Origin: Panulirus ornatus
Lineage: Eukaryota > Arthropoda > Malacostraca > Decapoda > Palinuridae
Assembly: GCF_036320965.1 (NCBI RefSeq)
Contig: NC_092234.1
Span: 29,196,434 to 29,260,433 of the forward strand
DNA length: 64,000 nt
Direction: 5' to 3'
Positions 15,853 to 64,000 of the stretch are shown in pieces. How positions within the stretch are numbered: position 1 is the first letter of the stretch; each line of letters opens with the position of its first letter. Made by a program: the position numbers and the translations under genes. The notes below the pieces were generated by a model. It ran no database searches and was not told where the DNA came from. It was given only the letters and a program-made list of their open reading frames with translations.

Positions 15853-16958
15853 TCAACTCTATCATATGCCTTCTCCAGATCCATAAATGCCACATACAAA
15901 TCCATTAGTTTTTCTAAGTATTTCTCACATACAGCTTTCAAAGCAAACACCTTATCCACACATCCTCTACCACTTCTGAAACCACGCTGCTCTTCCCCAG
16001 TCTGATGCTCTGTACATGCCTTGACCCTCTCAATCAATACTCTCCCATATGATTTCCCAAGAATGCTCAACAAACTTATACCTCTGTAATTTGAACACTC
16101 ACCTTTATCCCCTTTGCCTTTGTACGATGGCACTATGCATGCATTCTGCCAATCCTCAGGCACTTCACCATGAACCATACATACATAGAATATCCTCACC
16201 AACCAGTCAGCAACTCAGTCACCTCCATTTTTAATTAATTTCTCTGTAATACCATCCAAACCCACCGCTTTGCCAGCTTACATCTTCTGCAAAGCTTTCA
16301 CTACCTCTTCTCTGTTTACCAAACCAATCTCCCTGACCCTCTCACTTCGCACACCACCTCAACCAAAACACCCTATATCTGCCACTCTATCATCAAACAC
16401 ATTCAACACCTTCAAAATACTCGCTCCGTCTCCTCACTTCACCATTACTCGTTATTACCTCCCATTAGCCCCCTTCACTGATGTTCCCATTTGTTCTCTT
16501 GTCTTACGCTCTTTTTTTTTACCTCCTTCCAAAACATCTTTATCATTTATTTATTTATTATACTTAGTCTCTGTCTCCCGCGTTAGCAAGGTAGCGCAAG
16601 GAAACAGACGAAAGAATGGCCCAACCCACCCACATACACATGTGTATACATAAACGCCCACACATGCACATATACATATCTACGTATACATACATATACA
16701 TACACAGACATATACATATATACACATGTACATATTCATACTTGCTGCCTTCATCCATTCCTGTCGCCACCCCACCACACATGAAATGGCACCCCCTCCC
16801 CCCATGTGCGCATACGAGGTAGTGCAAGGAAAAGACAACAAAGGCCACGCTCGTTAACAATCAGTCTCCCTAATTACTTATTCTCCCTAAAATTTAATGA
16901 TACTCTCTCACCCCAACTCTCATTTGCCCTCTTTTTCACCTCTTGCACCTTTCTCTTG
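15853..16958 (-). mobile_element. RTE-1 copy E, inverted 5' segment
   Basis: Minus-strand RTE-1 covering, from right to left, the linker (KRKVQEVKKR) to RT motif A (AYDRVD, at the left edge). It is interrupted at 16541-16868 by an RTE-1 3'-end fragment. At 16958/16959 orientation flips, and the plus-strand part begins at IYGVGGK, only about 35 bp further along the element than the left edge of this piece. That is the geometry of a 5'-inverted (twin-primed) insertion. Confidence 0.8.
16541..16868 (-). mobile_element. RTE-1 3'-UTR-only insertion nested in copy E
   Basis: About 330 bp of long-form RTE-1 3' UTR with the terminal hairpin at the left (near 16575-16605), interrupting the linker region of copy E. 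The flanks join in RTE-1 as aaaacatctt followed by ttattctccc. This is an extremely 5'-truncated RTE-1 insertion, with no coding sequence. Confidence 0.8.
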
Positions 16959-18230
16959 AGTATATGGTGTGGGAGGAAAGTTGCTAGAAGCAGTGAAAAT
17001 TTTTTATCGAGGATGTAAGGCATGTGTATGGGTAGGAAGAGAGGAAAGTGATTGGTTCCCAGTGAATGTTGGTTTGCAGCAGGGGTGCATGATGTCTCCA
17101 TGGTTGTATAATTTGTTTATGGATGGGGTTGTTAGGGAGGTGAATGCAAGAGTTTTGGAGAGAGGGGCAAGTATGCAGTCTGCTGTAGATGGGAGGGCTT
17201 GGGAAGTGAGTCAGTTTTTCGCTGATGATACAGTGCTGGTGGATGATTCGGGTGAGAAACTGCAGGAGCTGGTGACTGAGTTTGGTAAAGTGTGTGAAAG
17301 AAGAAAGCTGAGAGTAAATGTGAATAAGAGCAAGGTTATTAGGTTCAGTAGGGTTGAGGGACAAGTCAATTAGGAGTTAAGTTTGAATGGAGAAAAACTA
17401 GAGGAAGTGAAGTGTTTTAGATATCTGGGAGTGGATTTGGCAGCGGATGGAACCATGGAAGCGAAAGTGAGTCACAGGATGGGGGAGAGGGTGAAGGTTC
17501 TGGGAGCGATGAAGAATGTGTGGAATGCAGGAACGTTCTCTCAGAGAGCAAAAATGGATATGTTTGAAGGAATAGTGGTTCCAACAATATTGTATTGTTG
17601 CGAGGTGTGGGCTATAGATAGGGTTGTGCGGAGGAGGGTGGATGTGTTGGAAATGAAATGTTTGAGGACAATATGTGTTGTGAGGTGGTTTGATTAAGTA
17701 ATGAAAGGGTAAGAGAGATTTGTGGTAATAAAAAGAGTGTGGTTAAGAGAGCAGAAGAGGGTGTATTGAAATGGTTTGGTCACATGGAGAGAATGAGTGA
17801 GGAAAGATTGACAAAGAGGATATATGTGTAAGAGGTGAAGGGAACGATGAGAAGTGGGAGACCAAATTGGAGGTGGAAGAATGGAGTGAAAAAGATTTTG
17901 AGTGATCGTGGCCTGAACATACAGTAGGGTGAAAGGCGCGCAAGGAATAGAGTGAATTGGAATGATGTGGTATCCCAGGGTCGACGTGCTGTCAATGGAT
18001 TGTACCAGGGCATGTGAAGTGTCTGGGTTAAACCATGGAAAGTTTTGTGGGGCTGGATGTGGAAAGGGAGCTGTGGTTTCAATGCATTACACGTGACAGC
18101 TAGAGACTGTGTGAATGAATGTGGTCTTTTGTCTTTTCCTAATGCTACCATGCGGGGGGGATGCTATTTCATGTGTGGCAGGGTGGCAACAGAATTGGAT
18201 AAAGGCAGCAAGAGTGAATATGTGCATGTG
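16959..18230 (+). mobile_element. RTE-1 copy E, sense 3' segment, first part
   Basis: Plus-strand RTE-1 from IYGVGGK in the RT to the middle of the long-form 3' UTR. The FADD box is intact near 17219-17230. Open pieces lie at 16969-17373 and 17383-17697, separated by a stop (17371-17373, where sisters have tgg). The 3' UTR is cut at 18230 by nested copy F and resumes at about 21448. Confidence 0.85.
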
Positions 18231-27049: not shown

Positions 27050-30000
27050 AATCCCTGGGGATGGGGAGAAAGAATACTTCCCATGCATTCCTCACGTGTC
27101 GTAGAAGGTGACTAAAGGGGACAGGAGCGGGGGGGCTAGAAACCCTCCCCTCGTTGTATTTTAACTTTCTAAAAGGGGAAACAGAAGAAGGAGTCAAGCG
27201 GGGAGTGCTCATCCTCCTCGAAGGCTCAGATTGGGGTGTCTAAATGTGTGTGGATGTAACCAAGATGAGAAAAAAGGAGAGATAGGTAGTATGTTTGAGG
27301 AAAGGAACCTGGATGTTTTGGCTCCGAGTGAAACGAAGCTCAAGGGTAAAGGGGAAGAGTGGTTTGGGAATGTCTTGGGAGTAAAGTCAGGGGTTAGTGA
27401 GAGGACAAGAGCAAGGGAAGGAGTAGCACTACTCCTGAAACAGGAGTGGTGGAAGTATATGATAGAGTGTAAGAAAGTAAATTCTAGATTGATATGGGTA
27501 AAACTGAAAGTTGATGGAGAGAGATGGGTGATTATTGGTGCATATGCACCTGGGCATGAGAAGAAAGATCATGAGAGGCATTTTGGGAGCAGCTGAATGA
27601 GTGTGTTAGTGGTTTTGATGCACAAGACAGGGTTATAGTGATGGGTGATATGAATGGAAAGGTGAGTAATGTGGCAGTTGAGGGAATAATTGGTATACAT
27701 GGGGTGTTCAGTGTTGTAAATGGAAATAGTGAAGAGCTTGTAGATTTATGTGCTGAAAAAGGACTAGTGATTGGGAATACCTGGTTTAAAAAGCGAGATA
27801 TACATAAGTATACGTATGCAAGTAGGAGAGATGGCCAGAGAGCATTATTGGATTACGTGTTAATTGATAGGCGCGCGAATGAGAGACTTTTGGATGTTAA
27901 TGTGCTGAGAGGCACAACTGGAGGGATGTCTGATCATTATCTTGTGGAGGCGAAGGTGAAGATTTGTAGGGGTTTTCAGAAAAAAAGAGAGAATGTTGGC
28001 GTGAAGAGAGTGGTGAGAGTAAGTGAGCTTAGGAAGGAGACTTGTGTGAGGAAGTACCAGGAGAGACTGAGTACAGAATGGAAAAAGGTGAGAACAAAGG
28101 AGGTAAGGGGAGTGGGGGAGGAATGGGATATATTTAGGGAAGCAGTGATGGCTTGCGCAAAAGATGCTTGTGGCATGAGAAGCGTGGGAGGTGGGTTGAT
28201 TAGAAAGGGTAGTGAGTGGTGGGATGAAGAAGTAAGGTTATTAGTGAAAGAGAAGAGAGAGGCATTTGGACGATTTTTGCAGGGTAAAATGCAAATGAGT
28301 GGGAGATGTATAAAAGAAAGAGGCAGGGGGTCAAGAGTAAAGTGCAAGAGGTAAAAAAGAGGGCAAATGAGAGTTGGGGTGAGAGAGTATCATTAAATTT
28401 TAGGGAGAATAAAAAGATGTTTTGGAAGGAGGTAAATAAAGTGCATAAGACAAGGGAGCAAATGGGAACTTCAGTGAAGGGGGCAAATGGGGAGGTGATA
28501 ACAAGTAGTGGTGATGTGAGAAGGAGATGGAGCAAGTATTTTGAAGGTTTGTTGAATGTGTTTGATGATAGAGTGGCAGATATAGGGTGTTTTGGTAGAA
28601 GTGGTGTGCAAAGTGAGAGGGTTAGGGAAAATGATTTGGTAAACAGAGAAGAGGTAGTAAAAGCTTTGTGGAAGATGAAAGCCGGCAAGGCAGCAGGTTT
28701 GGATGGTATTGCAGTGGAATTTATTAAGAAAGGGGGTGACTGTATTGTTGACTGGTTGGTAAGGTTATTTAATGTATGTATGATTCATAGTGAGGTGCCT
28801 GAGGATTGGCAGAATGCTTGCATAGTGCCATTGTACAAAGGCAAAGGGGATAAGAGTGAGTGCTCAAATTACAGAGGTATAAGTTTGTTCAGTATTCCTG
28901 GTAAATTATATGGGAGGGTATTGATTGAGAGGGTGAAGGCATGTACAGAGCATCAGATTGGGGAAGAGCAGTGTGGTTTCAGAAGTGGTAGAGGATGTGT
29001 GGATCAGGTGTTTGCTTTGAAGAATGTATGCGAGAAATACTTAGAAAAGTAAATGGATTACTATGTAGCATTTATGGATCTGGAGAAGGCATATGATAGA
29101 GTTGATAGAGATGCTCTGTGGAAGGTATTAAGAATATATGGTGTGGGAGGCAAGTTGTTAGAAGCAGTGAAAGTTTTTTTTGAGGATGTAAGGCATGTGT
29201 ACGTGTAGGAAGAGAGGAAAGTGATTGGTTCTCAGTGAATGTAGGTTTGTGGCAGGGGTGTGTGATGTCTCCATGGTTGTTTAATTTGTTTATGGATGGG
29301 GTTTTTAGGGAGGTGACTGCAAGAGTTTTGCTAAGAGGGGCAAGTATGCAGTCTGTTGTGGATGAGAGAGCTTGGGAGGTGAGTCAGTTGTTGTTCGCTG
29401 ATGATACAGCGCTGGTGGCTGATTCATGTGAGAAGCTGGTGACTGAGTTTGGTAAAGTGTGTGAAAGAAGAAAGTTGAGAGTAAATGTGAATAAGAGCAA
29501 GGTTATTAGGTACAGTAGGGTTGAGGGTCAAGTCAATTGGGAGGCAAGTTTGAATGGAGAAAAACTGGAGGAAGTAAAGTGTTTTAGATATCTGGGAGTG
29601 GATCTGGCAGCGGATGGAACCATGGAAGCGGAAGTGAATCATAGGGTGGGGGAGGGGGCGAAAATTCTGGTAGCCTTGAAGAATGTTTGGAAGTCGAGAA
29701 CATTATCTCGGAAAGCAAAAATGGGTATGTTTGAAGGAATAGTGGTTCCAATAATGTGTATGGTTGCAAGGCGTGGGCTATGGATAGAGTTGTGCGCAGG
29801 AGGGTGGATGTGCTGGAAATGAGATGTTTGAGGACAATATGTCGTATGAGGTGGTTTGATCGAGTATGTAATGTAAGGGTAAGAGAGATGTGTGGAAATA
29901 AAAAGAGTATGGTTGAGAGAGCAGAAGAGGGTGTTTTGAAATGGTTTGGTCACATGGAGAGAATGAGTGTGGAAAGATTGACCAAGAGGATATATATGTC

Positions 30001-30620
30001 AGAGGTGGAGGGAACGAGAAGTGGAAGACCAAATTGGAGGTGGAAAGATGGAGTGAAAAAGATTTTGAGTGATCGGGGCCTGAACGTGCAGGAGGGTGAA
30101 AGGAGTGCAAGGAATAGAGTGAATTGGAACGATGTGGTATACCGGGGTTGACGTGCTGTCAATGGATTGAACCAGGGCATGTGAAGCGTCTGGGGTAAAC
30201 CATGGAAAGTTCTGTGGGGCCTGGATGTGGAAAGGGAGCTGTGGTTTCGGTGCATTATTACATGACAGCTAGAGACTGAATGTGAATGAATGGGGCCTCT
30301 GTTGTCTTTTCCTAGCGCTACCTCGCACACATGAGGGGGAAGGGGGTTGTTATTCCAAGTGTGGCGAGGTGGCGATGGGAATAAATAAAGGCAGACAGTA
30401 TGAATTATGTACATGTGTATATATGTATATGTCTGTGTGTGTGTATATATGTATACATTGAGATGTATAGGTATGTATATTTGTGTGGGTGGATGTGTAT
30501 GTATATACATGTGTATGTGGTTGGGTTGGGCCATTCTTTCATCTGTTTCCTTGCACTACCTCACTAACGCGGGAGACAACGACACAGCAAAACAAAATAA
30601 GAAATGCGAATGAATAAATA
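27050..30620 (+). mobile_element. RTE-1 copy H, full-length reference copy
   Basis: Best complete example of the family, about 3.57 kb: 5' head starting tccctgggga (27052), about 175 bp of 5' UTR, endonuclease, linker, RT, C-terminal region, long 3' UTR (about 30150-30570), terminal hairpin and AT-rich tail. RTE elements carry a single polyprotein that nicks chromosomal DNA and copies its own RNA onto the nick (target-primed reverse transcription). No separate ORF1 is visible, as usual for RTE. Several frameshifts and one stop inactivate it. No clear target duplication was found. Confidence 0.92.
27225..30151 (+). pseudogene. RTE-1 endonuclease-reverse transcriptase polyprotein, disrupted
   Basis: Order of domains: AP endonuclease (LNVCGCN near 27235; SETKL, catalytic Glu, near 27328; YAPGH; MGDMNGKVSN near 27640, DLNAK in sisters; LDYVLIDRR; SDHYLV near 27935), basic coiled linker (28200-28470), RT ([10 protein letters not shown] 28676; motif A AFMDLEKAYDRVD near 29070-29110; QGCVMSPWLFNLFMDG near 29250; FADD near 29395) and C-terminal tail (KWFGHMERM near 29940, GRPNWRWKDGVKK). 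Disruptions: frameshifts near 27580 and 28290, stop at 29050-29052, frameshifts near 29175 and 29755. No in-frame ATG lies upstream of the endonuclease start. The endonuclease is the type often mislabelled craniofacial development protein 2. Confidence 0.88.
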
Positions 30621-35762: not shown

Positions 35763-38345
35763 TGTTGGAACCACTATTCCTTCAAACATACCCATTTTGC
35801 TCTCCGAGATAATGTTCTCGCCTTCCATACATTCTTCAACACTCCCAGAACCTTCGCCCCCTCCCCCACCCTGTGACTCACGTCCACTGCCAAGTCCACT
35901 CCCAGATATCTAAAACGCTTCACATCCTCCAGTTTTTCTCCATTCAAACTTTTTATTATTATACTTTGTCGCTGTCTCCCGCGTTTGCGAGGTAGCGCAA
36001 GGAAACAGACGAAAGAAATGGCCCAACCCCCCCCATACACATGTATATACATACGTCCACACACGCAAATATACATACCTACACAGCTTTCCATGGTTTA
36101 CCCCAGACGCTTCACATGCCTTGATTCAATCCACTGACAGCACGTCAACCCCGGTATACCACATCGCTCCAATTCACTCTATTCCTTGCCCTCCTTTCAC
36201 CCTCCTGCATGTTCAGGCCCCGATCACACAAAATCTTTTTCACTCCATCTTTCCACCTCCAATTTGGTCTCCCTCTTCTCCTCGTTCCCTCCACCTCCGA
36301 CACATATATCCTCTTGGTCAATCTTTCCTCACTCATTCTCCCCATGTGCCCAAACCATTTCAAAACACCCTCTTCTGCTCTCTCAACCACGCTCTTTTTA
36401 TTTCCACACATCTCTCTTACCCTTACGTTACTCACTCGATCAAACCACCTCACACCACACATTGTCCTCAAACATCTCATTTCCAGCACATCCATCCTCC
36501 TGCGCACAACTCTATCCATAGCCCACGCCTCGCAACCATACAACATTGTTGGAACCACTATTCCTTCAAACATACCCATTTTTGCTTTCCGAGATAATGT
36601 TCTCGACTTCCACACATTCTTCAAGGCTCCCAGAATTTTCGCCCCCTCCCCCACCCTATGATCCACTTCCGCTTCCATGGTTCCATCCGCTGCCAGATCC
36701 ACTCCCAGATATCTAAAACACTTCACTTCCTCCAGTTTTTCTCCATTCAAACTCACCTCCCAATTGACTTGACCCTCTCCTCCAGTTTTTCTCCATTCAA
36801 ACTCACCTCCCAATTGACTTGACCCTCAACCCTACTGTACCTAATAATCTTGCTCTTATTCACATTTACTCTTAACTTTCTTATTCCACACACTTTACCA
36901 AACTCAGTCACCAGCTTCTGCAGTTTCTCACATGAATCAGCCACCAGCGCTGTATCATCAGCGAACAACAACTGACTCACTTCCCAAGCTCTCTCATCCC
37001 CAACAGACTTCATACTTGCCCCTCTTTCCAAAACTCTTGCATTTACCTCCCTAACAACCCCATCCATAAACAAATTAAACAACCATGGAGACATCACACA
37101 CCCCTGCCGCAAACCTACATTCACTGAGAACCAATCACTTTCCTCTCTTCCTACACGTACACATGCCTTACATCCTCGATAAAAACTTTTCACTGCTTCG
37201 AACAACTTTCCTCCCACACCATATATTCTTAATACCTTCCACAGAGCATCTCTATCAACTCTATCATATGCCTTCTCCAGATCCATAAATGCTACATACA
37301 AATCCATTTGCTTTTCTAAGTATTTCTCACATACATTCTTCAAAGCAAACACCTGGTCCATACATCCTCTACTACTTCTGAAACCATACTGCTCTTCCCC
37401 AATCTGTACTCTGCCTTAAGCCTCTCAATCAAAACCCTCCCATATAATTTCCCAGGAATACTCAACAAGCTTATGCCTCTGTAATTTGAACACTCACCTT
37501 TATCCCCTTTGCCTTTGTACAGTGGCACAATGCATGCATTCTACCAATCCTCAGGCACTTCACCATGATCCATACATACATTGAATATCCTTACCAACCA
37601 ATCAACAACACAGTCACCCCTTTTTTTAATAAATTCCACTGCAATACCATCCAAATCTGCCGCCTTGCTGGTTTCATCTTCTGCAAAGCTTTCACTACCT
37701 CTTCTCTGTTCACCAAATCATTCTCCCTGACCCTCTCACTTTGCACTCCACCCTGACCAAAACACCCTATATCTGCAACTCTATCATCAAACTTTCAAAA
37801 TACTCACTCCTTCTTCTCACTACCTATCATTACCTCCCCATTTGCCCCCTTCACCAATGTGCCCATGTTCTCTTGTCTCACACACTTTATTTACCTCCTT
37901 CCAAAACATCTTTTTATTCTCCCTAAAATTTAATGATACTCTCTCACTCCAACTCTCATTTGTCCTCTTTTTCACTTCTTGCACCGTTCTCTTGACCTGC
38001 CACTTTCTTTTATACCTTTCCCAGTCATTTCCATTTCTTCCTTGCAAAAAGTGTCCGAATGCCTGTCTCGTCTTTCTCTAACAATCTTACTTCATCCCAC
38101 CATTCACTACCCTTTCTAATCTGCCCACCTCCCACCTTTCTCATGCCCCATGCATCTTTTGTACAAGCCATCACTGCTTCCCTAAATACATCCCATTCCC
38201 ATTCCTCCCCCACTCCCCTTACTTCATTTGCTCTCACCTTTAGCCATTCTGCATGCAATCTCTCCTGGTATTTCCTCACACAAGTCTCCTTTCCAAGCTC
38301 ACCACTCTCTTCTCTCCAACATTTTCTCTTCTTTTCTGAAAATAT
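35763..38345 (-). mobile_element. RTE-1 copy J, mosaic of an old and a young copy
   Basis: Left piece 35763-35950 is an old RTE-1 segment. From about 35951 a young, short-3'-UTR RTE-1 begins with its tail and terminal hairpin and stays near-identical to copies D, K and Q until about 37370. From there to 38345 the sequence is again of the diverged type (linker and endonuclease edge). Open pieces: 36145-36813, 36753-37361, 37340-37528, 37820-38047 and 38025-38279. The FADD box is intact near 36950-36965. It is either a young insertion into an old copy or a gene conversion tract. Confidence 0.82.
36728..36827. repeat. Exact 50-bp tandem repeat in copy J
   Basis: Positions 36728-36777 and 36778-36827 match exactly. 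They cover the SLNGEKLEE region. The first 26 bases of this unit also occur at 35925-35950, directly left of the young copy's 3' tail. Confidence 0.9.
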
Positions 38346-41220: not shown

Positions 41221-43853
41221 GGAAATGGTGAAGAGCTTGTAGATTTATGTGCTGAAAAAGGACTGATGATTGGGTATACCTGGTTTAAAAAGCGAGATAT
41301 ACATAAGTATACTTATGTAAGTAGGAGAGATGGCCAGAGAGCGTTATTGGATTACGTGTTAATTGACAGGCGCGCGAAAGAGAGACTTTTGGATGTTAAT
41401 GTGCTGAGAGGTGCAACTGGAGGGATGTCTGATCATTATCTTGTGGAGGCTAAGGTGAAGATTTGTATGGGTTTTCAGAAAAGAAGAGTGAATGTTGGGG
41501 TGAAGAGGGTGGTGAGAGTAAGTGAGCTTGGGAAGGAGACTTGTGTGAGGAAGTACCAGGAGAGACTGAGTACAGAATGGAAAAAGGTGAGAACAATGGA
41601 AGTAAGGGGAGTGGGGGAGGAATGAGATGTATTTAGGGAATCAGTGATGGATTGCGCAAAAGATGCTTGTGGCATGAGAAGAGTGGGAGGTGGGTTGATT
41701 AGAAAGGGTAGTGAGTGGTGGGATGAAGAAGTAAGAGTATTAGTGAAAGAGAAGAGAGAGGCATTTGGACGATTTTTGCAGGGAAAAAATGAAATTGAGT
41801 GGGAGATGTATAAAAGAAAGAGACAGGAGGTCAAGAGAAAGGTGCAAGAGGTGAAAAAAAGGGCAAATGAGAGTTGGGGTGAGAGAGTATCATTAAATTT
41901 TAGGGAGAATAAAAAGATGTTCTGGAAGGAGGCAAATAAAGTGCGTAAGACAAGGGAGCAAATGGGAACTTCAGTGAAGGGCGCAAATGAGGAGGTGATA
42001 ACAAGTAGTGGTGATGTGAGAAGGAGATGGAGTGAGTATTTTGAAGGTTTGTTGAATGTGTTTGATGATAGAGTGGCAGATATAGGGTGTGTTGGTCGAG
42101 GTGGTGTGCAAAGTGAGAGGGTTAGGGAAAATGATTTGGTAAACAGAGAAGAGGTAGTAAAAGCTTTGCGGAAGATGAAAGCCGGCAAGGCAGCAGGTTT
42201 GGATGGTATTGCAGTGGAATTTATTAAAAAAGGGGGTGACTGTATTGTTGACTGGTTGGTAAGGTTATTTAATGTATGTATGACTCATGGTGAGGTGCCT
42301 GAGGATTGGCGGAATGCATGCATAGTGCCATTGTACAAAGGCAAAGGGGATAAGAGTGAGTGCTCAAATTACAGAGGTATAAGTTTGTTGAGTATTCCTG
42401 GTAAATTATATGGGAGGATATTGATTGAGAGGGTGAAGGCATGTACAGAGCATCAGATTGGGGAAGAGCAGTGTGGTTTCAGAAGTGGTAGAGGATGTGT
42501 GGATCAGGTGTTTGCTTTGAAGAATGTATGTGAGAAATACTTAGAAAAGCAAATGGATTTGTATGTAGCATTTATGGATCTGGAGAAGGCATATGATAGA
42601 GTTGATAGAGATGCTCTGTGGAAGGTATTAAGAATATATGGTGTGGGAGGCAAGTTGTTAGAAGCAGTGAAAAGTTTTTATCGAGGATGTAAGGCATGTG
42701 TACGTGTAGGAAGAGAGGAAAGTGATTGGTTCTCAGTGAATGTAGGTTTGCAGCAGGGGTGTGTGATGTCTCCATGGTTGTTTAATTTGTTTATGGATGG
42801 GGTTGTTAGGGAGGTGAATGCAAGAGTTTTGGAAAGAGGGGCAAGTATGAAGTCTGTTGGGGATGAGAGAGCTTGGGAAGTGAGTCAGTTGTTGTTCGCT
42901 GATGATACAGCGCTGGTGGCTGATTCATGTGAGAAACTGCAGAAGCTGGTGACTGAGTTTGGTAAAGTGTGTGAAAGAAGAAAGTTAAGAGTAAATGTGA
43001 ATAAGAGCAAGGTTATTAGGTACAGTAGGGTTGAGGGTCAAGTCAATTGGGAGGTGAGTTTGAATGGAGAAAAACTGGAGGAAGTGGTGTTTTAGATATC
43101 TGGGAGTGGATCTGGCAGCGGATGGAACCATGGAAGCGGAAGTGGATCATAGGGTGGGGGAGGGGGCGAAAATTCTGGGAGCCTTGAAGAATGTGTGGAA
43201 GTCGAGAACATTATCTCGGAAAGCAAAAATGGGTATGTTTGAAGGAATAGTGGTTCCAACAATGTTGTATGGTTGCGAGGCGTGGGCTATGGATAGAGTT
43301 GTGCGCAGGAGGATGGATGTGCTGGAAATGAGATGTTTGAGGACAATATGTGGTGTGAGGTGGTTTGATCGAGTAAGTAACGTAAGGGTAAGAGAGATGT
43401 GTGGAAATAAAAAGAGCGTGGTTGAGAGAGCAGAAGAGGGTGTTTTGAAATGGTTCGGGCACATGGAGAGAATGAGTGAGGAAAGATTGACCAAGAGAAT
43501 ATATGTGTTGGAGGTGGAGGGAACGAGGAGAAGAGGGAGACCAAATTGGAGGTGGAAAGATGGAGTGAAAAAGATTTTGTGTGATCGGGGCCTGAACATG
43601 CAGGAGGGTGAAAGGAGGGCAAGGAATAGAGTGATTTGGAGCGATGTGGTATACCGGGGTTGACGTGCTGGCAGTGGATTGAATCAAGGCATGTGAAGCG
43701 TCTGGGGTAAACCATGGAAAGCTGTGTAGGTATGTATATTTGCGTGTGTGGACGTATGTATATACATGTGTATGGGGGTGGGTTGGGCCATTTCTTTCGT
43801 CTGTTTCCTTGCGCTACCTCGCAAACGCGGGAGACAGCGGAAAAAAAAAAAAA
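41221..43853 (+). mobile_element. RTE-1 copy K, young, with a perfect 14-bp target duplication
   Basis: Truncated in the endonuclease at NGEELVDLC and running to the short 3' UTR, terminal hairpin (43810-43840) and A tail. ATGAAAAAAATCAT occurs at 41207-41220 and 43854-43867, directly at both edges. It sits in the large intron between the host-gene exons at 40845-40925 and 46645-46764, in antisense orientation to that gene. Confidence 0.95.
41266..43663 (+). pseudogene. RTE-1 copy K polyprotein, three frames
   Basis: Late endonuclease and linker (41266-41625), then linker and RT through FADD (41644-43095, 483 codons, FADD near 42896-42907), then C-terminal region (43064-43663, KWFGHMERM, GRPNWRWKDGVKK). 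Only two lesions separate them: a TGG-to-TGA stop at 41623-41625 and a 2-bp deletion at about 43086. Otherwise it is one of the best preserved copies. The N-terminal half of the endonuclease is missing by 5' truncation, so it was never autonomous. Confidence 0.88.
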
Positions 43854-52594: not shown

Positions 52595-52840
52595 CCATGG
52601 GGATAGGGGATTAAGAATACTTCCCACGTATTCCCTGCGTGTCGTAGAAGGCGACTAAAAGGGGAGGGAGCGGGGGGCTGGAAATCCTCCCCTCTCTTTT
52701 TTTTTATATTTTCCAAAAGAAGGAACAGAGAAGGGGGCCAGGTGAGGATATTCCAAAAAAGGCCTAGTCCTCTGTTCTTAACGCTACCTCACTAACGCGG
52801 GAAATGGCGAATAGCTTAAAAGAAAGAAAGAAAGAAAGAA

Positions 52841-52842
<2 letters not shown>
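52591..52842 (+). mobile_element. Short RTE-1-derived element S3
   Basis: Second complete copy, head-to-tail with S2. The tail carries (GAAA)n before the (TA)n. Same head and terminal hairpin as S2. Confidence 0.88.

Positions 52843-52911
<69 letters not shown>
52843..52911. repeat. (TA)n microsatellite
   Basis: About 34 TA units between S3 and RTE-1 fragment M. Confidence 0.97.
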
Positions 52912-52915
<4 letters not shown>

Positions 52916-53408
52916 AATCTACAAGCTCTTCACCATTTCCATTTACAACACTGAACACTCCATGTATACCAATTATTCCCTCAACTGCCACATTACTCAC
53001 CTTTGCATTCAAATCACCCATCACTATAACCCGGTCTTGTGTATCAAAACCACTAACACACTCATTCAGCTGCTCCCAAAACACTTGCCTCTCATGATCT
53101 TTCTTCTCATGCCCAGGTGCATATGCAACAATAATCACCCATCTCTCTCCATCCACTTTCAGTTTTACCCATATCAATCTAGAATTTACTTTCTTACACT
53201 CTATCACATACTCCCACAACTCCTGATTCAGGAGTAGTGCTACTCCTTCCCTTGCTCTTGTCCTCTCACTAACCCCTGACTTTACTCCCAAGACATTCCC
53301 AAACCACTCTTCCCCTTTACCCTTGAGCTTCGTTTCACTCAGAGCCAAAACATCCAGGTTCCTTTCCTCAAACATACTACCTATCTCTCCTTTTTTCTCA
53401 CCTTGGTT

Positions 53409-53410
<2 letters not shown>
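52912..53410 (-). mobile_element. RTE-1 fragment M, endonuclease N-terminal half
   Basis: Minus-strand piece encoding, without a frame break, from CNQGEKKGEIGSMFEERN to SVVNGNGEELVDLC. It includes SETKL (catalytic Glu), YAPGHEKKDHE and VMGDLNAKVSN. It is cut at both ends by microsatellite. The coding is intact but is a fragment of an endonuclease. Confidence 0.9.

Positions 53411-53496
<86 letters not shown>
53409..53496. repeat. (CA)n(TA)n microsatellite
   Basis: A short CA run grading into about 35 TA units at the boundary between fragment M and the hyperedited copy N. Confidence 0.97.
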
Positions 53497-53498
<2 letters not shown>

Positions 53499-54424
53499 GG
53501 GCAGACGGTGTGAATTGTGTACATGTGTATATATGTATATATATGGGAAGCTTGGGAGGTGGGTCGGTTGTTGTTCGCTGGTGATGCAGCGCTGGTGGCT
53601 GGTTCGTGTGAGGGGCTGCAGGGGCTGGTGACTGAGTTTGGTGGGGTGTGTGAGGGAAGAGAGTTGGGAGTGGGTGTGAATGGGAGCAGGGTTGTTGGGT
53701 GCAGTGGGGTTGGGGGTCAATTCAGTTGGGAGGTGAGTTTGAGTGGAGAAGGGCTGGAGGGGGTGAAGTGTTTTGGATGTCTGGGGGTGGGTCTGGCGGC
53801 GGGTGGAGCCGTGGAGGCGGGGGGTGGATCGTGGGGTGGGGGGGGGGGGGGGTTCTGGGGGCCTTGGGGGGTGTGTGGAGGTCAAGAGCATTATCTCGGA
53901 GGGCGGGGGTGGGTGTGTTTGGGGGAATGGTGGTTCCAATAATGTTGTGTGGTTGCGAGGCGTAGACTGTGGATGGAGTTGTGCGCGGGAGGGTGGATGT
54001 GCTGGAGGTGGGGTGTTTGGGGACGGTGTGTGGTGTGGGGTGGTTTGATCGAGTGGGTGGCGTGGGGGTAGGAGAGGTGTGTGGAGGTAGGGAGAGCGTG
54101 GTTGGGGGAGCGGGGGAGGGTGTTTTGAGGTGGTTTGGTCGCGTGGAGAGGGTGAGTGGGGAGGGATTGACCGGGAGGATGTGTGTCGGGGGTGGAGGGA
54201 GCGAGGAGGGGGGGGACCAGGTTGGGGGTGGAAGGATGGAGTGGGGGGGGTTTGTGTGGTCGGGGCCTGGACATGCGGGAGGGTGGGGGGGGGGAGGGTA
54301 ATGGAGTGAGTTAGAGCGATGTGGTGTGCCGGGGTTGGCGTGCTGTCGGTGGATTGAATCAGGGCATGTCTGTGGGGGTGGGTTGGGCCGTTTCTTTCGT
54401 CTGTTTCCTTGCGCTGCCTCGCGG
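53497..54424 (+). mobile_element. RTE-1 copy N, A-to-G hypermutated retrocopy
   Basis: After about 50 bp of RTE-1 3' UTR (53497-53545), a plus-strand RTE-1 segment runs from ERAWEVSQLLF (about 53546) to the 3' UTR and the start of the terminal hairpin. Aligned by eye to copies D, K, O and Q it differs almost only by A-to-G. In 53551-53750 I count about thirty A-to-G and one or two other changes. The FADD box has become FAGD. Unchanged A residues are mostly preceded by G. The pattern fits ADAR editing of the sense RNA before reverse transcription. The coding frame is destroyed. Confidence 0.85.
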
Positions 54425-54440
54425 GCGCAAGGAAACAGAC
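54399..54440. repeat. Perfect foldback: 16-bp inverted repeat, 10-bp loop
   Basis: gtctgtttccttgcgc (54399-54414) and its exact reverse complement (54425-54440). The left arm is RTE-1 3' UTR in sense, the right arm the same sequence in antisense. At 54441 the sequence jumps to the linker/RT border of a minus-strand RTE-1. Confidence 0.95.
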
Positions 54441-55988
54441 TTCCTCTTCTCTGTTTACCAAATCATTTTCCCTAACCCTCTCACTTTGCACACCACCTCG
54501 ACCAAAACACCCTATATCTGCCACTCTATCATCAAACACATTCAACAAACCTTCAAAATACTCGGTCCATCTCCTTCTCACATCACCACTACTTGTTATC
54601 ACCTCCCCATTAGCCCCCTTCACTGAAGTTCCCATTTGTTCCCTTGTCTTACGCACTCTATTTACCTCCTTCCAAAACATCTTTTTATTCTCCCTAAAAT
54701 TTAATGATACTCTCTCACCCCAACTCTCATTTGCCCTCTTTTTCACCTCTTGCACCTTTCTTTTGACCTCCTGCCTCTCTTTTATACATCTCCCTTTCAT
54801 TTGCATTTTTTCCCTGCAAAAATCGTCCAAATGCCTCTCTCTTCTCTTTCACTAATAATCTTACTTCTTCATCCCACCACTCGCTACCCTTTCTAATCAA
54901 CCCACCTCCCACGCTTCTCATGCCACAAGCATCTTTTTCGCAAGCCATCTCTGCTTCCCTAAATACATCCCATTCCTCCCCCACTCCCCTTACCTCCTTT
55001 GTTCTCACCTTTTTCCATTCTGAACTCAGTCTCTCCTGGTACTTCCTCTGACCACTCTCTTCACCCCAATATTCTCTCCTCTGAAAACCCCTACAAATCT
55101 TCACCTTCACCTCCACAAGATAATGATCAGACATCCCTCCAGTTGCACCTCTCAGCTCATTAACATCCAAAAGTCTCTCTTTCACGCGCCTATCAATTAA
55201 CACGTAATCCAATAATGCTCTCTGGCCATCTCTCCTACTTGCATACGTATACTTATGTAGATCTCGCTTTTTGAACCAGGTATTCCCAGTCACCAGTCCT
55301 TTTTCAGCACATAAATCTACAAGCTCTTCACCATTTCCATTTACAACACTGAACACCCCATGTATACCAATTATTCCCTCAACTGCCACATTACTCACCT
55401 TTGCATTCAAATCACCCGTCACTATAACCCAGTCTTGTGCATCAAAACCACTAACACACTCATTCACGTGCTCTCAAAACACTTGCCTCTCATGATCTTT
55501 CTTCTCATGCCCAGGTGCATATGCACCAATAATCACCCATCTCCCTCCATCAACTTTCAGTTTTACCCATATCAATCTAGAATTTACTTTCTTACATTCT
55601 ATCACATACTCCCACAACTCCTGTTTCAGGAGTAGTGCTACTCCTTCCCTTGCTCTTGTCCTCTCACTAACCCCTGACTTTACTCCCAAGACATTCCCAA
55701 ACCACTCTTACCCTTTACCCTTGAGCTTTGTTTCACTCGGAGCCAAAACATCCAGGTTCCTTTCGTCAAACATACTACCTATCTCTCCTTTTTTCTCATC
55801 TTGGTTACATCCACACATATTTAGACACACCAATCTGGGCCTTCAAGAAGGATGAGCACTCCTCGCGTGACTCCTTCTTCTGTTTCCCCTTTTAGAAAGT
55901 TAAAATACAAAGAGGGGAGGGTTTCTGGCCCCCCTGCTTCCGTCCGCTTTAGTCGCCTTCTAGAACACATGAGGAATGCGTGGGAAGT

Positions 55989-55992
<4 letters not shown>
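54441..55992 (-). mobile_element. RTE-1 copy O, inverted 5' half
   Basis: Minus strand, from NREE at the linker/RT border (left edge) through the linker, endonuclease and 5' UTR to the 5' head at 55992. Its left edge meets, in element coordinates, the start of the plus-strand segment at 56431 within about 15 bp. The two together make one RTE-1 with its 5' half inverted, except that a (TA)n/S4/(TA)n block lies between. Frames are broken: 54727-55467 and 55474-55689 are open. Confidence 0.85.
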
Positions 55993-56068
<76 letters not shown>

Positions 56069-56432: not shown

Positions 56433-57928
56433 CGGAAGATGAAAGCCGGCAAGGCAGCAGGTTTGGATGGTACTGCAGTGGAATTTATTAAAAAAGGGGG
56501 TGACTGTATTGTTGACTGGTTGGTAAGGTTATTTAATGTATGTATGATTCATGGTGAGGTGCCTGAGGATTGGCGGAATGTGTGCATCGTGCCATTGTAC
56601 AAAGGCAAAGGGGATAAGAGTGAGTGCTCAAATTACAGAGGTATAAGTTTGTTGAGTATTCCTGGTAAATTATATGGGAGGGTATTGATTGAGAGGGTGA
56701 AGGCATGTACAGAGCATCAGACTGGGGAAGAGCAGTGTGGTTTCAGAAGTGGTAGAGGATGTGTGGATCAGGTGTTTGCTTTGAAGAATGTATGTGAGAA
56801 ATACTTAGAAAAGCAAATGGATTTGTATGTAGCATTTATGGATCTGGAGAAGGCATATGATAGAGTTGATAGAGATGCTCTGTGGAAGGTATTAAGAATA
56901 TATGGTGTAGGAGGCAAGTTGTTAGAAGCAGTGAAAAGTTTTTATCGAGGATGTAATGCCTGTGTACGTGTAGGAAGAGAGGAAAGTGATTGGTTCTCAG
57001 TGAATGTAGGTTTGCGGCAGGGGTGTGTGATGTCTCCATGGTTGTTTAATTTGTTTATGGATGGGGTTGTTAGGGAGGTAAATGCAAGAGTTTTGGAAAG
57101 AGGGGCAAGTATGAAGTCTGTTGGGATGAGAGAGCTTGGGAGGTGAGTCAGTTGTTGTTCGCTGATGATACAGTGCTGGTGGCTGATTCATGTGAGAAAC
57201 TGCAGAAGCTGGTGACTGAGTTTGGTAAAGTGTGTGAAAGAAGAAAGTTAAGAGTAAATGTGAATAAGAGCAAGGTTATTAGGTACAGTAGGGTTGAGGG
57301 TCAAGTCAATTGGGAGGTAAGTTTGAATGGAGCAAAACTGGAGGAAGTAAAGTGTTTTAGATATCTGGGAGTGGATCTGGCAGTGGATGGAACCATGGAA
57401 GCGGAAGTGGATCATAGGGTGGGGGAGGGGGCGAAAATCCTGGGAGCCTTGAAGAATGTGTGGAAGTCGAGAACATTATCTCTGAAAGCAAAAATGGGTA
57501 TGTTTGAAGGAATAGTGGTTCCAACAATGTTGTATGGTTGCGAGGCGTGGGCTATGGATAGAGTTGTGCACAGGAGGATGGATGTGCTGGAAATGAGATG
57601 TTTGAGGACAATGTGTGGTGTGAGGTGGTTTGATCGAGTAAGTAACGTAAGGGTAAGAGAGATGTGTGGAAATAAAAAGAGCGTGGTTGAGAGAGCAGAA
57701 GAGGGTGTTTTGAAATGGTTTGGGCACATGGAGAGAATGAGTGAGGAAAGATTGACCAAGAGGATATATGTGTCAGAGGTGGAGGGTACGAGGAGAAGTG
57801 GGAGACCAAATTGGAGGTGGAAAGATGGAGTGAAAAAGATTTTGTGTGATCGGGGCCTGAACATGCAGGAGGGTGAAAGGAGGGCAAGGAATAGAGTGAA
57901 TTGGATCGATGTGGTATACCGGGGTTGA
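56430..57928 (+). pseudogene. RTE-1 copy O RT and C-terminal region, one frameshift
   Basis: 238 codons of RT (56430-57146), then after a 1-bp deletion at about 57123 (gttgggatgag, four G in sisters) the second frame 57143-57928 with FADDTVLVADS and the full C-terminal tail. No other lesion was seen, so nearly the whole RT is preserved. The endonuclease half is inverted and separated (54441-55992). Confidence 0.88.
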
Positions 57929-58128
57929 CGTGCTGTCAGTGGATTGAACCAGGGCATGTGAAGCGTCTGGGGTAAACCATGGAAAGCTGTGTAGGTATGT
58001 ATATTTGCGTGTGTGGATGTATGTATATACATGTGTATGGGGGTGGGTTGGGCCATTTCTTTCGTCTGTTTCCTTGCACTACTTCGCAAATGCGGGAGAC
58101 AGCGACAAAGCAAAAAAAAAAAGAAAAA
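56431..58128 (+). mobile_element. RTE-1 copy O, sense 3' half
   Basis: Starts exactly at the RT N-terminus ([13 protein letters not shown]) and runs to the short 3' UTR, terminal hairpin and A tail. Young subfamily (KSVG, ILCDRG). Confidence 0.9.
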
Positions 58129-58676: not shown

Positions 58677-60372
58677 TTATTTAATGTATGTATGCATGTA
58701 CAGAGCATCAGATTGGGGAAGAGCAGTGTGGTTTCAGAAGTGGTAGAGGATGTGTGGATTAGGTGTTTGCTTTGAAGAATGTATGTGAGAAATACTTAGA
58801 AAACAAATGGATTTGTATGTAGCATTTATGGATCTGGAGAAGGCATATGATAGAGTTGATAGAGATGCTCTGTGGAAGGTTTTAAGAATATATGGTGTGG
58901 GAGGCAAATTGTTAGAAGCAGTGAAAAGTTTTTATCGAGGATGTATGGCATGTGTACGTGTAGGAAGAGAGGAAAGTGATTGGTTCTCAGTGAATGTAGG
59001 TTTGCGGCAGGGGTGTGTGATGTCTCCATGGTTGTTTAATTTGTTTATGGATGGGGTTGTTAGGGAGGTGAATGCAAGAGTTTTGGAAAGAGGGGCAAGT
59101 ATGAAGTCTGTTGTGGATGAGAAAGCTTGGGGAGTGAGTCAGTTGTTGTTTGCTGATGATACAGCGCTGGTGGCTGATTCATGTGAGAAACTGCAGAAGC
59201 TGGTGACTGAGTTTGGTAAAGTGTGTGAAAGAAGAAAGTTAAGAGTAAATGTGAATAAGAGCAAGGTTATTAGGTACAGTAGGGTTGAGGGTCAAGTCAA
59301 TTGGGAGGTAAGTTTGAATGGAGAAAAACTGGAGGAAGTAAAGTGTTTTAGATATCTGGGAGTGGAACTGGCAGCAGATGGAACCATGGAAGCGGAAGTG
59401 AATCATAGGGTGGGGGAGGGGGCGAAAATCCTGGGAGCCTTGAAGAATGTGTGGAAGTCGAGAACATTATCTCTGAAAGCAAAAATGGGTATGTTTGAAG
59501 GAATAGTGGTTCCAACAATGTTGTATGGTTGCGAGGCGTGGGCTATGGATAGAGTTGTGCGCAGGAGGGTGGATGTGCTGGAAATGAGATGTTTGAGGAC
59601 AATGTGTGGTGTCAGGTGATCGAGTAAGTAATGTAAGGGTAAGAGAGATGTGTGGAAATAAAAAGAGCGTGGTTGAGAGAGCAGAAGAGGGTGTTTTGAA
59701 ATGGTTTGGGCACATGGAGAGAATGAGTGAGGAAAGATTGACCAAGAGGATATATGTGTCAGAGGTGGAGGGAACAAGGAGAAGTGGGAGACCAAATTGG
59801 AGGTGGAAAGATGGAGTGAAAACGATTTTGTGTGATTGGGGTCTGTACATGCGGGAGGGTGAAAGGCGGGCAAGGAATAGAGTGAATTGGATCGATGTGG
59901 TATACTGGGGTTGACGTGCTGTCAGTGGATTGAATCAGGGATTGTGAAGCGTCTGGGGTAAACCATGCAAAGTTGTGTGGGGCCTGGATGTGGAAAGGGA
60001 GCTGTGGTTTCGGGCATTATTGCGTGACAGCTGGAGACCGAGTGTGAACGAATGGGGCCTTTGTTGTCTTTTCCTAGTGCTACCTCGCACACATGAGGGG
60101 GGAGGGGGATGGTATTCCATGTGTGGCGAGATGGCGATGGGAATGAATAGGGGCAGACAGTGTGAATTGTGTGCATGGGTATATATGTATGTGTCTGTGT
60201 GTATATATATATATGTGTACATTGAGATGTATAGGTATGTATATTTGCGTGTGTGGGCATGTGTGTGTGTACATTGTGTATGGGGGTGGGTTGTGCCATT
60301 TCTTTCGTCTGTTTCCTTGCGCTACCTCGCAAACGCGGGAGACAGCGACAAAGCAAAATAAAAAAAAAATAA
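58675..60372 (+). mobile_element. RTE-1 copy P
   Basis: Begins inside the RT (LFNVCM), with an early deletion joining it to CTEHQIGEEQ, and runs to a long-form 3' UTR, terminal hairpin (60320-60350) and A tail. Its young coding sequence combined with the long 3' UTR shows that the long and short 3' UTR types coexist among recent copies. Confidence 0.9.
58807..59914 (+). pseudogene. RTE-1 copy P RT and C-terminal region
   Basis: 270 codons (58807-59619) from MDLYVAFMDLEKAYDRVD through FADDTALVADS to MRCLRTMCGVR, then a small deletion near 59617 (the WF of GVRWFDRVS) shifts to 59606-59914 with KWFGHMERM and GRPNWRWKDG. It lacks the endonuclease and early RT. Confidence 0.85.
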
Positions 60373-60393: not shown

Positions 60394-62472
60394 TCAGGGA
60401 AAAAATGCAAATTAGTGGGAGATGTATAAAAGAAAGAGGCAGGAAGTCAAGAGAAAGGTGCAAGAGGTGAAAAAGAGGGCAAATGAGAGTTGGGGTGAGA
60501 GAGTAACATTAAATTTTAGGAAGAATAAAAAGATGTTCTGGAAGGAGGTAAATAAAGTGCGTAAGACAAGGGTCCAAATGGGAACTTCAGTGAAGGGGGC
60601 TAATGGGGAGGTGATAACAAGTAGTGGTGATGTAAGGAGATGGAGTGAGTATTTTGAAGGTTTGTTGAATGTGTTTGATGATAGAGTGGCAGATATAGGG
60701 TGTTTTGGTCAAGGTGGTGTGCAAAGTGAGAGGGTTAGGGAAAATGATTTGGTAAACAGAGAAGAGGTAGTAAAAGCTTTGCAGAAGATGAAAGCTGGCA
60801 AGGCAGTAGGTTTGGATGGTATTGCAGAGGAATTTATTAAAAAAAGGGGGTGACTGTATTGTTGACTGGTTGGTAAAGTTACTTAATGTATGTATGATTC
60901 ATGGTGAGGTGCCTGAGGATTGGCGGAATGATTGCATAGTACCATTGTACAAAGGCAAAGGGGATAAGAGTGAGTGCTCAAATTACAGAGGTATAAGTTT
61001 GTTGAGTATTCCTGGTAAATTATATGGGAGGGTATTGATTGAGAGGGTGAAGGCATGTACAGAGCATCAGATCGGGGAAGAGCAGTGTGGTTTCAGAAGT
61101 GGTAGAGGATGTGTGGATCAGGTGTTTGCTTTGAAGAATGTATGTGAGAAATACTTAGAAAAGCAAATGGATTTGTATGTAGCATTTATGGATCTGGAGA
61201 AGGCATATGATAGAGTTGATAGAGATGCTCTGTGGAAGGTATTAAGAATATATGGAGTGGGAGGAAAGTTGTTAGAAGCAGTGAAAAGTTTTTATCGAGG
61301 ATGTAAGGCATGTGTACGTGTAGGAAGAGAGGAAAGTGATTGGTTCTCAGTGAATGTAGGTTTGCGGCAGGGGTGTGTGATGTCTCCATGGTTGTTTAAT
61401 TTGTTTATGGATGGGGTTGTTAGGGAGGTAAATGCAAGAGTTTTGGAAAGAGGGGCAAGTATGAAGTCTGTTGGGGATGAGAGAGCTTGGGAAGTGAGTC
61501 AGTTGTTGTTCGCTGATGATACAGCGCTGGTGGCTGATTCATGTGAGAAACTGCAGAAGCTGGTGACTGAGTTTGGTAAAGTGTGTGGAAGAAGAAAGTT
61601 AAGAGTAAATGTGAATAAGAGCAAGGTTATTAGGTACAGTAGGGTTGAGGGTCAAGTCAATTGGGAGGTGAGTTTGAATGGAGCAAAACTGGAGGAAGTG
61701 AAGTGTTTTAGATATCTGGGAGTGGATCTGGCAGCGGATGGAACCATGGAAGCGGAAGTGGATCATAGGGTGGGGGAGGGGGCGAAAATTCTGGGGGCCT
61801 TGAAGAATGTGTGGAAGTCGAGAACATTATCTCGGAAAGCAAAAATGGGTATGTTTGAGGGAATAGTGGTTCCAACAATGTTGTATGGTTGCGAGGCGTG
61901 GGCTATGGATAGAGTTGTGCGCAGGAGGATGGATGTGCTGGAAATGAGATGTTTGAGGACAATGTGTGGTGTGAGGTGGTTTGATCGAGTGAGTAACGTA
62001 AGGGTAAGAGAGATGTGTGGAAATAAAAAGAGCGTGGTTGAGAGAGCAGAAGAGGGTGTTTTGAAGTGGTTTGGGCACATGGAGAGAATGAGTGAGGAAA
62101 GATTGACCAAGAGGATATATGTGTCGGAGGTGGAGGGAACGAGGAGAAGAGGGATACCAAATTGGAGGTGGAAAGATGGAGTGAAAAAGATTTTGTGTGA
62201 TCGGGGCCTGAACATGCAGGAGGGTGAAAGGAGGGCAAGGAATAGAGTGAATTGGAGCGATGTGGTATACCGGGGTTGACGTGCTGTCAGTGGATTGAAT
62301 CAAGGCATGTGAAACGTCTGGGGTAAACCATGGAAAGCTGTGTAGGTATGTATATTTGCGTGTGTGGACGTATGTATATACATGTGTATGGGGGGGGGGG
62401 TTGGGCCATTTCTTTCGTCTGTTTCCTTGCGTTACCTCGCAAACGCGGGAGACAGCGACAAAGTGTAATTAA

Positions 62473-63153: not shown

Positions 63154-64000
63154 CTTGCTTTGTCGCTGTCTCCCGCGTTTGCGAGGTAGCGCAAGGAAAC
63201 AGACGAAAGAAATGGCCCAACCCACCCCCATACACATGTATATACATACGTCCACACACGCAAATATACATACCTACACAGCTTTCCATGGTTTACCCCA
63301 GACGCTTCACATGCCCCGATTCAATCCACTGACAGCACGTCAACCCCGGTATACCACATCGCTCCAATTCACTCTATTCCTTGCCCTCCTTTCACCCTCC
63401 TGCATGTTCAGGCCCCGATCACACAAAATCTTTTTCACTCCATCTTTCCACCTCCAATTTGGTCTCCCTCTTCTCCTCGTTCCCTCCACCTCCGACACAT
63501 ATATCCTCTTGGTCAATCTTTCCTCACTCATTCTCTCCATGTGCCCAAACCATTTCAAAACACCCTCTTCTGCTCTCTCAACCAAGCTCTTTTTATTTCC
63601 ACACATCTCTCTTACCCTTACGTTACTTACTCGATCAAACCACCTCACACCACACATTGTCCTCAAACATCTCATTTCCAGCACATCCATCCTCCTGCGC
63701 ACAACTCTATCCATAGCCCACGCCTCGCAACCATACAACATTGTTGGAACCACTATTCCTTCAAACATACCCATTTTTGCTTTCCGAGATAATGTTCTCG
63801 ACTTCCACACATTCTTCAAGGCTCCCAGAATTTTCGCCCCCTCCCCCACCCTATGATCCACTTCCGCTTCCATGGTTCCATCCGCTGCCAGATCCACTCC
63901 CAGATATCTAAAACACTTCACTTCCTCCAGTTTTTCTCCATTCAAACTCACCTCCCAATTGACTTGACCCTCAACCCTACTGTACCTAATAACCTTGCTC
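63154..64000 (-). mobile_element. RTE-1 copy S, continues off the right edge
   Basis: Minus strand: hairpin (63160-63195), short 3' UTR, then a complete C-terminal region (63340-63951 open, 203 codons: LEEVKCFRYLGVDLAADG to NWSDVVYRG) and the late RT to the window edge. Young subfamily; no lesion is visible in the part seen. Confidence 0.92.

What the first reader, a model, noticed from the sequence alone, without database searches (positions are those of the whole stretch)
53546..54424. A-to-G hypermutated RTE-1 retrocopy: fossil of ADAR-edited retrotransposon RNA
Aligned by eye with sister copies (D, K, O, Q), this segment differs almost exclusively by A-to-G on the element's sense strand, across roughly 870 bp: about thirty in the first 200 bp against one or two other changes. 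TA and AA contexts are nearly always changed, while A after G is most often spared, which matches the known 5'-neighbour preference of ADAR (U, A above C above G). T-to-C is not raised. Cytidine deaminases acting on cDNA would give G-to-A instead. The simplest reading is that a double-stranded RTE-1 transcript was hyperedited by ADAR and then reverse transcribed into the genome. A few exceptions exist (two G-to-A near 53965).
Basis: partly seen in the sequence, partly recalled or inferred. Interest (0 to 1): 0.93.

Follow-up and report, generated by a model that had tools for sequence, protein, structure and literature searches.

The report
Genomic fossils of ADAR-hyperedited retrotransposon RNA
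This stretch is a dead copy of a jumping gene in which about sixty percent of the A letters on one strand became G, best explained by an RNA-editing enzyme hitting the gene's RNA before it was copied back into DNA, and the same lobster genome holds many more such copies, some edited on the opposite strand.

Summary
Confirmed and extended. Window 53549-54369 differs from the consensus of its 7 closest sister copies by A>G at 147 of 244 A, 10 other substitutions and no T>C. The 5'-neighbour order is ADAR's: U 24/28, A 68/82, C 15/28, G 40/105. The genome (2.65 Gb; Panulirus ornatus by a 100% protein match on a contig of equal length) holds more. All 20 further copies fetched, of 39 other best hits, are hyperedited at different A sets. 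An edited 34-mer has 122 sites, its unedited form 196,878. Editing has sharp edges inside single insertions. One lineage marked by a shared 3' flank has unedited, partly edited and edited members; the flank is unedited. The mirror control was not empty: T>C-hyperedited copies exist, with ADAR's context on the antisense strand; 4 of the 7 analysed adjoin a poly(A)-tailed SINE. Best reading: both strands of LINE double-stranded RNA were hyperedited by ADAR and separately reverse transcribed in the germline. RNA data, duplex partners and target-site duplications are missing.

The parts
53549..54369 (+). hyperedited sense LINE fragment (end of the reverse transcriptase, from the LLFADD motif, to the 3' UTR); element coordinates 29369-30182 of the window copy at 27056-30604
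   Evidence: A>G at 147 of 244 A, 10 other substitutions
54365..54428 (+). edited 3' tail of the same copy, after an internal 3'-UTR deletion of about 75 bp; the same junction region is missing in L009, L011 and L012
   Evidence: (A>G 10/12 in the tail)
54399..54440 (.). foldback junction: 16-bp perfect inverted repeat (arms 54399-54414 and 54425-54440, 10-base loop); the copy's own 3' end is lost here, with no poly(A)
   Evidence: arms checked
54439..55993 (-). unedited antisense 5' half of another copy of the element, abutting the foldback
   Evidence: balanced substitution spectrum
53497..53545 (+). (TA)n end and a short unedited 3'-UTR-like piece immediately 5' of the edited fragment
52911..53421 (-). 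unedited antisense endonuclease-domain fragment of the same element
   Evidence: Pfam PF03372 3e-6
61484..62310 (+). closest-class unedited sister used as reference; others at 11388-12214, 42870-43694, 57133-57959, 59123-59940 (+) and 36114-36990, 63309-64000 (-)

Best explanation
A sense transcript of this LINE paired with antisense LINE RNA. ADAR converted about 60% of its adenosines to inosine, preferring A after U or A. The LINE reverse transcriptase read inosine as guanosine and the product was inserted into the germline. The same has happened many times in this genome, each insertion being a snapshot of one RNA molecule. Antisense strands were edited as well and entered the genome as 5' parts of read-through transcripts, in four analysed cases ending in a SINE with poly(A). 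Shown: the spectrum, the context, different edit sets per copy, edges inside insertions, edited and unedited members of one lineage, the antisense class, ADAR-family deaminase exons in the genome. Inferred: that ADAR was the enzyme, that the duplex was between LINE strands, and that the window copy was joined at its 3' end by a snap-back repair step rather than by ordinary target-primed insertion.
For: A>G 147 of 244 A in the window copy, 0 T>C. Pooled over 20 copies: A>G 2514 of 4914 A, T>C 23 of 3871 T, G>A 54 of 6272 G. 5' neighbour U .85, A .70, C .53, G .27; 3' flat. No linkage between edit sites beyond about 10 nt. Unedited 5' part joined to an edited 3' part in L012, L013, L016, L018, L023; unedited 3' ends in L017, L021, L022, L028. 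L030 against L032: 18 A>G and 2 others in 428 aligned bases; in the shared SINE flank (35 A) no A>G in the members compared. Antisense class: T>C 545 of 1375 T, 89 other substitutions, order U>A>C>G on the antisense strand. A_deamin exons on C47, best solved match human ADAR2. L024 and L025, a 7.9-kb duplication with 10 mismatches, have identical edits at 240 of 240 A sites, so the edits are in genomic DNA.
Against: No RNA data were available. The downstream preference for A reported for invertebrates (PMC5625713, passages) is absent here. The window copy has no poly(A), and target-site duplications could not be read because the insertions lie in (TA)n or poly(A) tracts. No duplex partner was identified. 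Pairs of copies share somewhat more edits than a simple additive model predicts (190 pairs, mean z -1.8, 26 below -3); L013, L016 and L018, which share a flank and an edge, share most. I read this as shrinkage in the model plus shared substrate, not shared descent, but did not prove it. The genome-wide G>A control never ran.
Confidence: 0.92

Rival explanations
1. A G-rich subfamily: the A>G changes were fixed once and inherited by many copies.
For: Many G-rich copies exist, and a few are true duplicates (L024/L025; L013a/L013b in part).
Against: Other copies differ from the window copy by both G>A and A>G in tens each and little else. All pairs other than L024/L025 differ at 18-43% of A sites. 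Edit sites are unlinked beyond 10 nt. Edges lie inside insertions.
Confidence: 0.02
2. A reverse transcriptase that misreads A (as in diversity-generating retroelements) rather than a deaminase.
For: It would act on one strand of the template and spare other bases.
Against: A goes to G only: A>C 5 and A>T 18 against A>G 2514. The 5'-neighbour order is ADAR's on both the sense and the antisense class. Editing stops sharply inside an insertion and spares the co-transduced SINE.
Confidence: 0.03
3. Deamination of DNA rather than RNA, for example ADAR acting on the cDNA strand of the RNA-DNA hybrid or on second-strand DNA.
For: ADARs can edit deoxyadenosine in DNA-RNA hybrids in model substrates (PMC12925331, passages). 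T>C copies exist, which first-strand cDNA editing would give.
Against: cDNA editing cannot give the sense A>G class. In the 7 analysed T>C blocks none reaches the element's 3' end, and 4 of 7 adjoin a poly(A)-tailed SINE on the antisense side, as expected for antisense RNA and not for edited cDNA of sense RNA.
Confidence: 0.03
4. Sequencing or assembly artefact.
For: Only one assembly was examined, with no reads.
Against: Edits are shared exactly by two duplicated loci that differ elsewhere, the context is biological, and edited stretches are embedded in ordinary sequence at 122 pattern sites.
Confidence: 0.01

Closest known systems
ADAR hyperediting of repeat-derived double-stranded RNA in metazoan transcriptomes (PMC5625713, passages read)
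   Same: Clustered A>G, G depleted 5' of edited A, repeats as substrate, LINEs such as chicken CR1 included.
   Different: There it is seen in RNA reads; here it is fixed in genomic DNA after reverse transcription, one molecule per locus and both strands represented.
[quoted passage not shown]
   Same: Edited RNA passes through reverse transcription into integrated DNA.
   Different: Viruses, somatic or in culture; in bovine leukaemia virus three proviruses with a window of about 70 bp. Here a germline LINE with blocks of roughly 0.2-1.7 kb in many copies.
APOBEC 'DNA editing' of retroelements in genomes, and the genomic-trace survey PMC2873906 (passages)
   Same: Clustered one-type mismatches in retroelement copies as a mark of a deaminase.
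   Different: Those are G>A. That survey saw no A-to-G/T-to-C excess in high-quality DNA traces of human and Xenopus.
Deaminase-driven reverse-transcription model (PMC11817618, start of abstract in a search listing only)
   Same: Proposes that deaminated RNA is copied back into DNA.
   Different: A model for cancer mutation signatures; not about germline LINE copies.

Membership tests
ADAR hyperediting | A>G far above other changes on one strand | tested here: met
ADAR hyperediting | 5' neighbour U, A > C > G | tested here: met
   mirrored class
ADAR hyperediting | downstream preference for A in invertebrates (as reported in PMC5625713) | tested here: not met
   3' neighbour flat.50-.53 pooled. 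A secondary feature, weaker than the 5' one.
ADAR hyperediting | confined to duplex-forming stretches | tested here: inconclusive
   sharp edges and a spared SINE flank, but the partner strand was not identified
ADAR hyperediting | both strands of the duplex edited | tested here: met
   T>C class; as a genome-wide class, not as a matched pair of strands
ADAR hyperediting | a dsRNA adenosine deaminase in the genome | tested here: met
   exons of three loci on C47; full genes and dsRNA-binding domains were not assembled
LINE retrotransposition | endonuclease and reverse transcriptase in the element | tested here: met
LINE retrotransposition | 5' truncation with intact 3' end and A-rich or (TA)n tail | tested here: met
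   19 of 21 edited copies by my reading; not the window copy (foldback) nor L020
LINE retrotransposition | target-site duplications | tested here: inconclusive
   flanks lie in (TA)n or poly(A)
APOBEC-type DNA editing | G>A on the coding strand | tested here: not met
   G>A 5 in the window copy; 0 hyper tiles in 223.5 kb
Diversity-generating retroelement | A to any base | tested here: not met
   A>G 2514, A>C 5, A>T 18

The most novel reading that the evidence does not exclude
A lobster germline keeps a readable archive of ADAR hyperediting: hundreds of LINE insertions, each a frozen single RNA molecule with its duplex edges, from both strands. Sense strands entered by the element's own 3' end, antisense strands as read-through RNAs carried by a downstream SINE tail. 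ADAR thereby acts in the germline as a mutator that kills LINE RNAs before insertion, and duplex length, editing rate and partner can be read from DNA alone.
Probability: 0.7. Interest if true: 0.86.

Novelty: new variant of a known kind. Interest (0 to 1): 0.83.

Why it matters
Editing of retrotransposon RNA is usually visible only in RNA reads and leaves no inheritable trace. Here it is fixed in DNA at scale, so germline ADAR activity against LINEs, its strand symmetry, its duplex length and its yield (edited against unedited insertions) can be measured in any assembled genome. It also shows that inosine-rich RNA can be reverse transcribed and inserted, and it warns that G-rich or C-rich 'subfamilies' and long open frames in repeat annotation may be editing scars.

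Tried and rejected
G-rich subfamily, founder mosaic, A-misreading reverse transcriptase, deamination of cDNA, APOBEC and assembly artefact were considered and rejected for the reasons given under the rivals. Twin priming does not explain the window arrangement: the element's 3' end, not the 5' sides of the two halves, lies in the middle. The antisense half next to the edited copy cannot be its duplex partner, since it covers another part of the element and is unedited.

Led nowhere: the source locus of the L013/L016/L018 lineage was not found among the 8 junction places. No edited antisense arm was found inside the fetched sense-class loci. An edited pattern for the 5' half of the element did not complete, nor was the genome-wide G>A control. 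The segmentation of L018 is spoiled by a joined neighbouring copy; its edge is taken. L053 (T>C 111, but G>A 37 and A>G 24) was left out of the pooled T>C count, and L025 and L013b out of the pooled A>G counts. In the SINE scan 2 of 58 sense hits looked hyperedited, but one G>A outlier (L023, 15/34) also appeared and was not followed.

Full report
What is there. Window 53549-54369, with a tail to about 54428, is a 5'-truncated sense copy of a LINE whose other copies fill the window. The element encodes an endonuclease domain (PF03372) and a reverse transcriptase (PF00078; nearest solved structures are LINE-1 ORF2 proteins). Against the consensus of the 7 closest sisters the copy has A>G at 147 of 244 A, 10 other substitutions and no T>C; against the consensus of all 14 sisters 147 of 245 and 11 others including one T>C. 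Edited fractions by 5' neighbour are T 24/28, A 68/82, C 15/28, G 40/105; the 3' neighbour has no effect. Neighbouring antisense pieces of the element are not edited.

The genome. The window lies on contig C11 of a 2.65-Gb assembly. An ADAT1-like protein from it is 100% identical over 516 residues to that of Panulirus ornatus, on a contig of the same length. PF02137 matches lie at one place on C50 (the ADAT1-like gene) and in three groups of exons on C47. One C47 exon best matches human ADAR2 among solved structures, E 2e-26.

Many edited copies, edited differently. Searching the genome with the edited copy scored 40 places, all at 84-90% identity, against about 70-80% for the unedited window copies. 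Because the query was edited, this list is biased towards edited copies. They differ from the window copy by both G>A and A>G in tens each. L024 and L025, a 7.9-kb duplication with 10 mismatches, agree at 240 of 240 A sites; L013 holds two copies that partly share edits; other pairs disagree at 21-43%. Pooled over 20 copies the edited fraction is U 459/538, A 1147/1629, C 294/557, G 546/2036, and 3' neighbours are flat. Across copies, edit sites are unlinked beyond about 10 nt. An additive model does show somewhat more sharing than expected (190 pairs, mean z -1.8, 26 below -3), strongest in the lineage described below. A site's propensity is reproducible: sites edited in at least 0.8 of the other 19 copies are edited in the window copy 51 of 55 times, those in under 0.2 of them 5 of 49 times.

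How many. A 34-mer with 8 edited positions, up to 2 mismatches, occurs at 122 sites (control 1); the unedited form occurs at 196,878 (control 0). The first number contains local duplicates and misses copies such as the window's own, which has 3 mismatches by my reading, so it is only an order of magnitude: about one edited per 1,600 unedited. Apart from the loci that I fetched, these sites were not read.

Edges and lineage. In L012, L013, L016, L018 and L023 an unedited 5' part runs straight into the edited part of the same insertion; in L017, L021, L022 and L028 the 3' end is unedited. By my reading, 19 of 21 edited copies keep the element's 3' end with an A-rich or (TA)n tail, some with G inside the tail; the window copy and L020 do not. 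L013, L016 and L018 share a flank of about 380 bp beyond the element's end, but have different 5' truncations and different edits. A junction search found 8 places with this flank. L029 and L030 are unedited (1/70, 2/82), L032 is edited in part (20/84), and L013, L016, L018 and L031 are edited. L030 and L032 also share their 5' junction and private variants, and differ by 18 A>G and 2 others in 428 bases. The 116-bp SINE flank with 35 A shows no A>G in any member compared. Editing therefore acted on individual RNAs of one lineage and spared the SINE part. L013, L016 and L018 also share their editing edge near element position 2080-2135, which suggests one duplex-forming source; I did not find it.

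The mirror control. I expected none, but a pattern with T>C at four fixed positions gave 28 sites (control 0); seven of them share one motif and may be duplicates. I fetched 8 of the 28. Seven blocks show T>C at 545 of 1375 T with 89 other substitutions; the eighth, L053, is noisier and was left out. Read on the antisense strand, the 5' order is U 147/231, A 180/348, C 199/661, G 19/126. None of the 7 reaches the element's 3' end. In 4 of 7 (L047, L048, L051, and L049 after a TA tract) the antisense fragment is followed by a sense SINE with a long poly(A). These look like read-through antisense RNAs, hyperedited and retroposed by way of the SINE end. In 223.5 kb an unbiased scan found 33 A>G tiles, 32 in the LINE and one in a SINE (L011), and no G>A or C>T tiles; its T>C tiles are the same loci on the other strand.

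Mechanism. ADAR editing of LINE duplex RNA followed by reverse transcription explains the spectrum, the context, the per-copy differences, the edges, the spared flank and the two strand classes. The enzyme and the pairing partner are inferred. The window copy differs from most in ending in a 16-bp foldback (54399-54440) joined to an unrelated antisense half, which I read as snap-back repair at insertion (inference).

Literature. Ten searches of an open-access library turned up no report of germline LINE copies hyperedited A>G in a genome. Subscription papers and preprints were not covered, so absence from print is not established. What was seen: passages of PMC12925331, PMC5974252, PMC2873906, PMC5625713 and PMC8025556, abstract and outline of PMC10877575, and listings for the rest.

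Noticed in passing
window 52767-54848, minus strand: A 694-aa open frame runs through the edited copy. Within 53549-54369 one minus frame has no stop and the unedited consensus has 3-6 stops per minus frame, so the frame looks like a by-product of A>G editing, not a gene.
   Followed up: partly
L026 4763-4851 and L011 4558-4768: SINE copies with A>G 12/23 and 21/51. An edited SINE 34-mer (5 fixed sites, up to 1 mismatch) has 94 sites genome-wide, not read individually apart from the L026 one.
   Followed up: partly
L023 4522-4612: A SINE piece with G>A 15/34, the opposite type of change.
   Followed up: no
window 15853-18230: Antisense 29105->28331 meeting sense 29132->30417, the layout of a 5' inversion by twin priming, with a 3'-UTR piece inserted.
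   Followed up: no
L013 3027-4582 and 6413-7890: Two neighbouring copies share edits over their last part but not upstream, suggesting local duplication or gene conversion between edited and unedited sequence.
   Followed up: partly
L046: A T>C-edited antisense fragment is followed directly by an unedited sense copy, an inverted pair.
   Followed up: no
genome G000: About 197,000 sites of one 34-mer of this LINE in 2.65 Gb: a very abundant family.
   Followed up: no
G000 contig C47, 1.20-1.28 Mb and 21.45-21.46 Mb: Three groups of adenosine-deaminase exons, suggesting ADAR paralogues in this lobster.
   Followed up: partly
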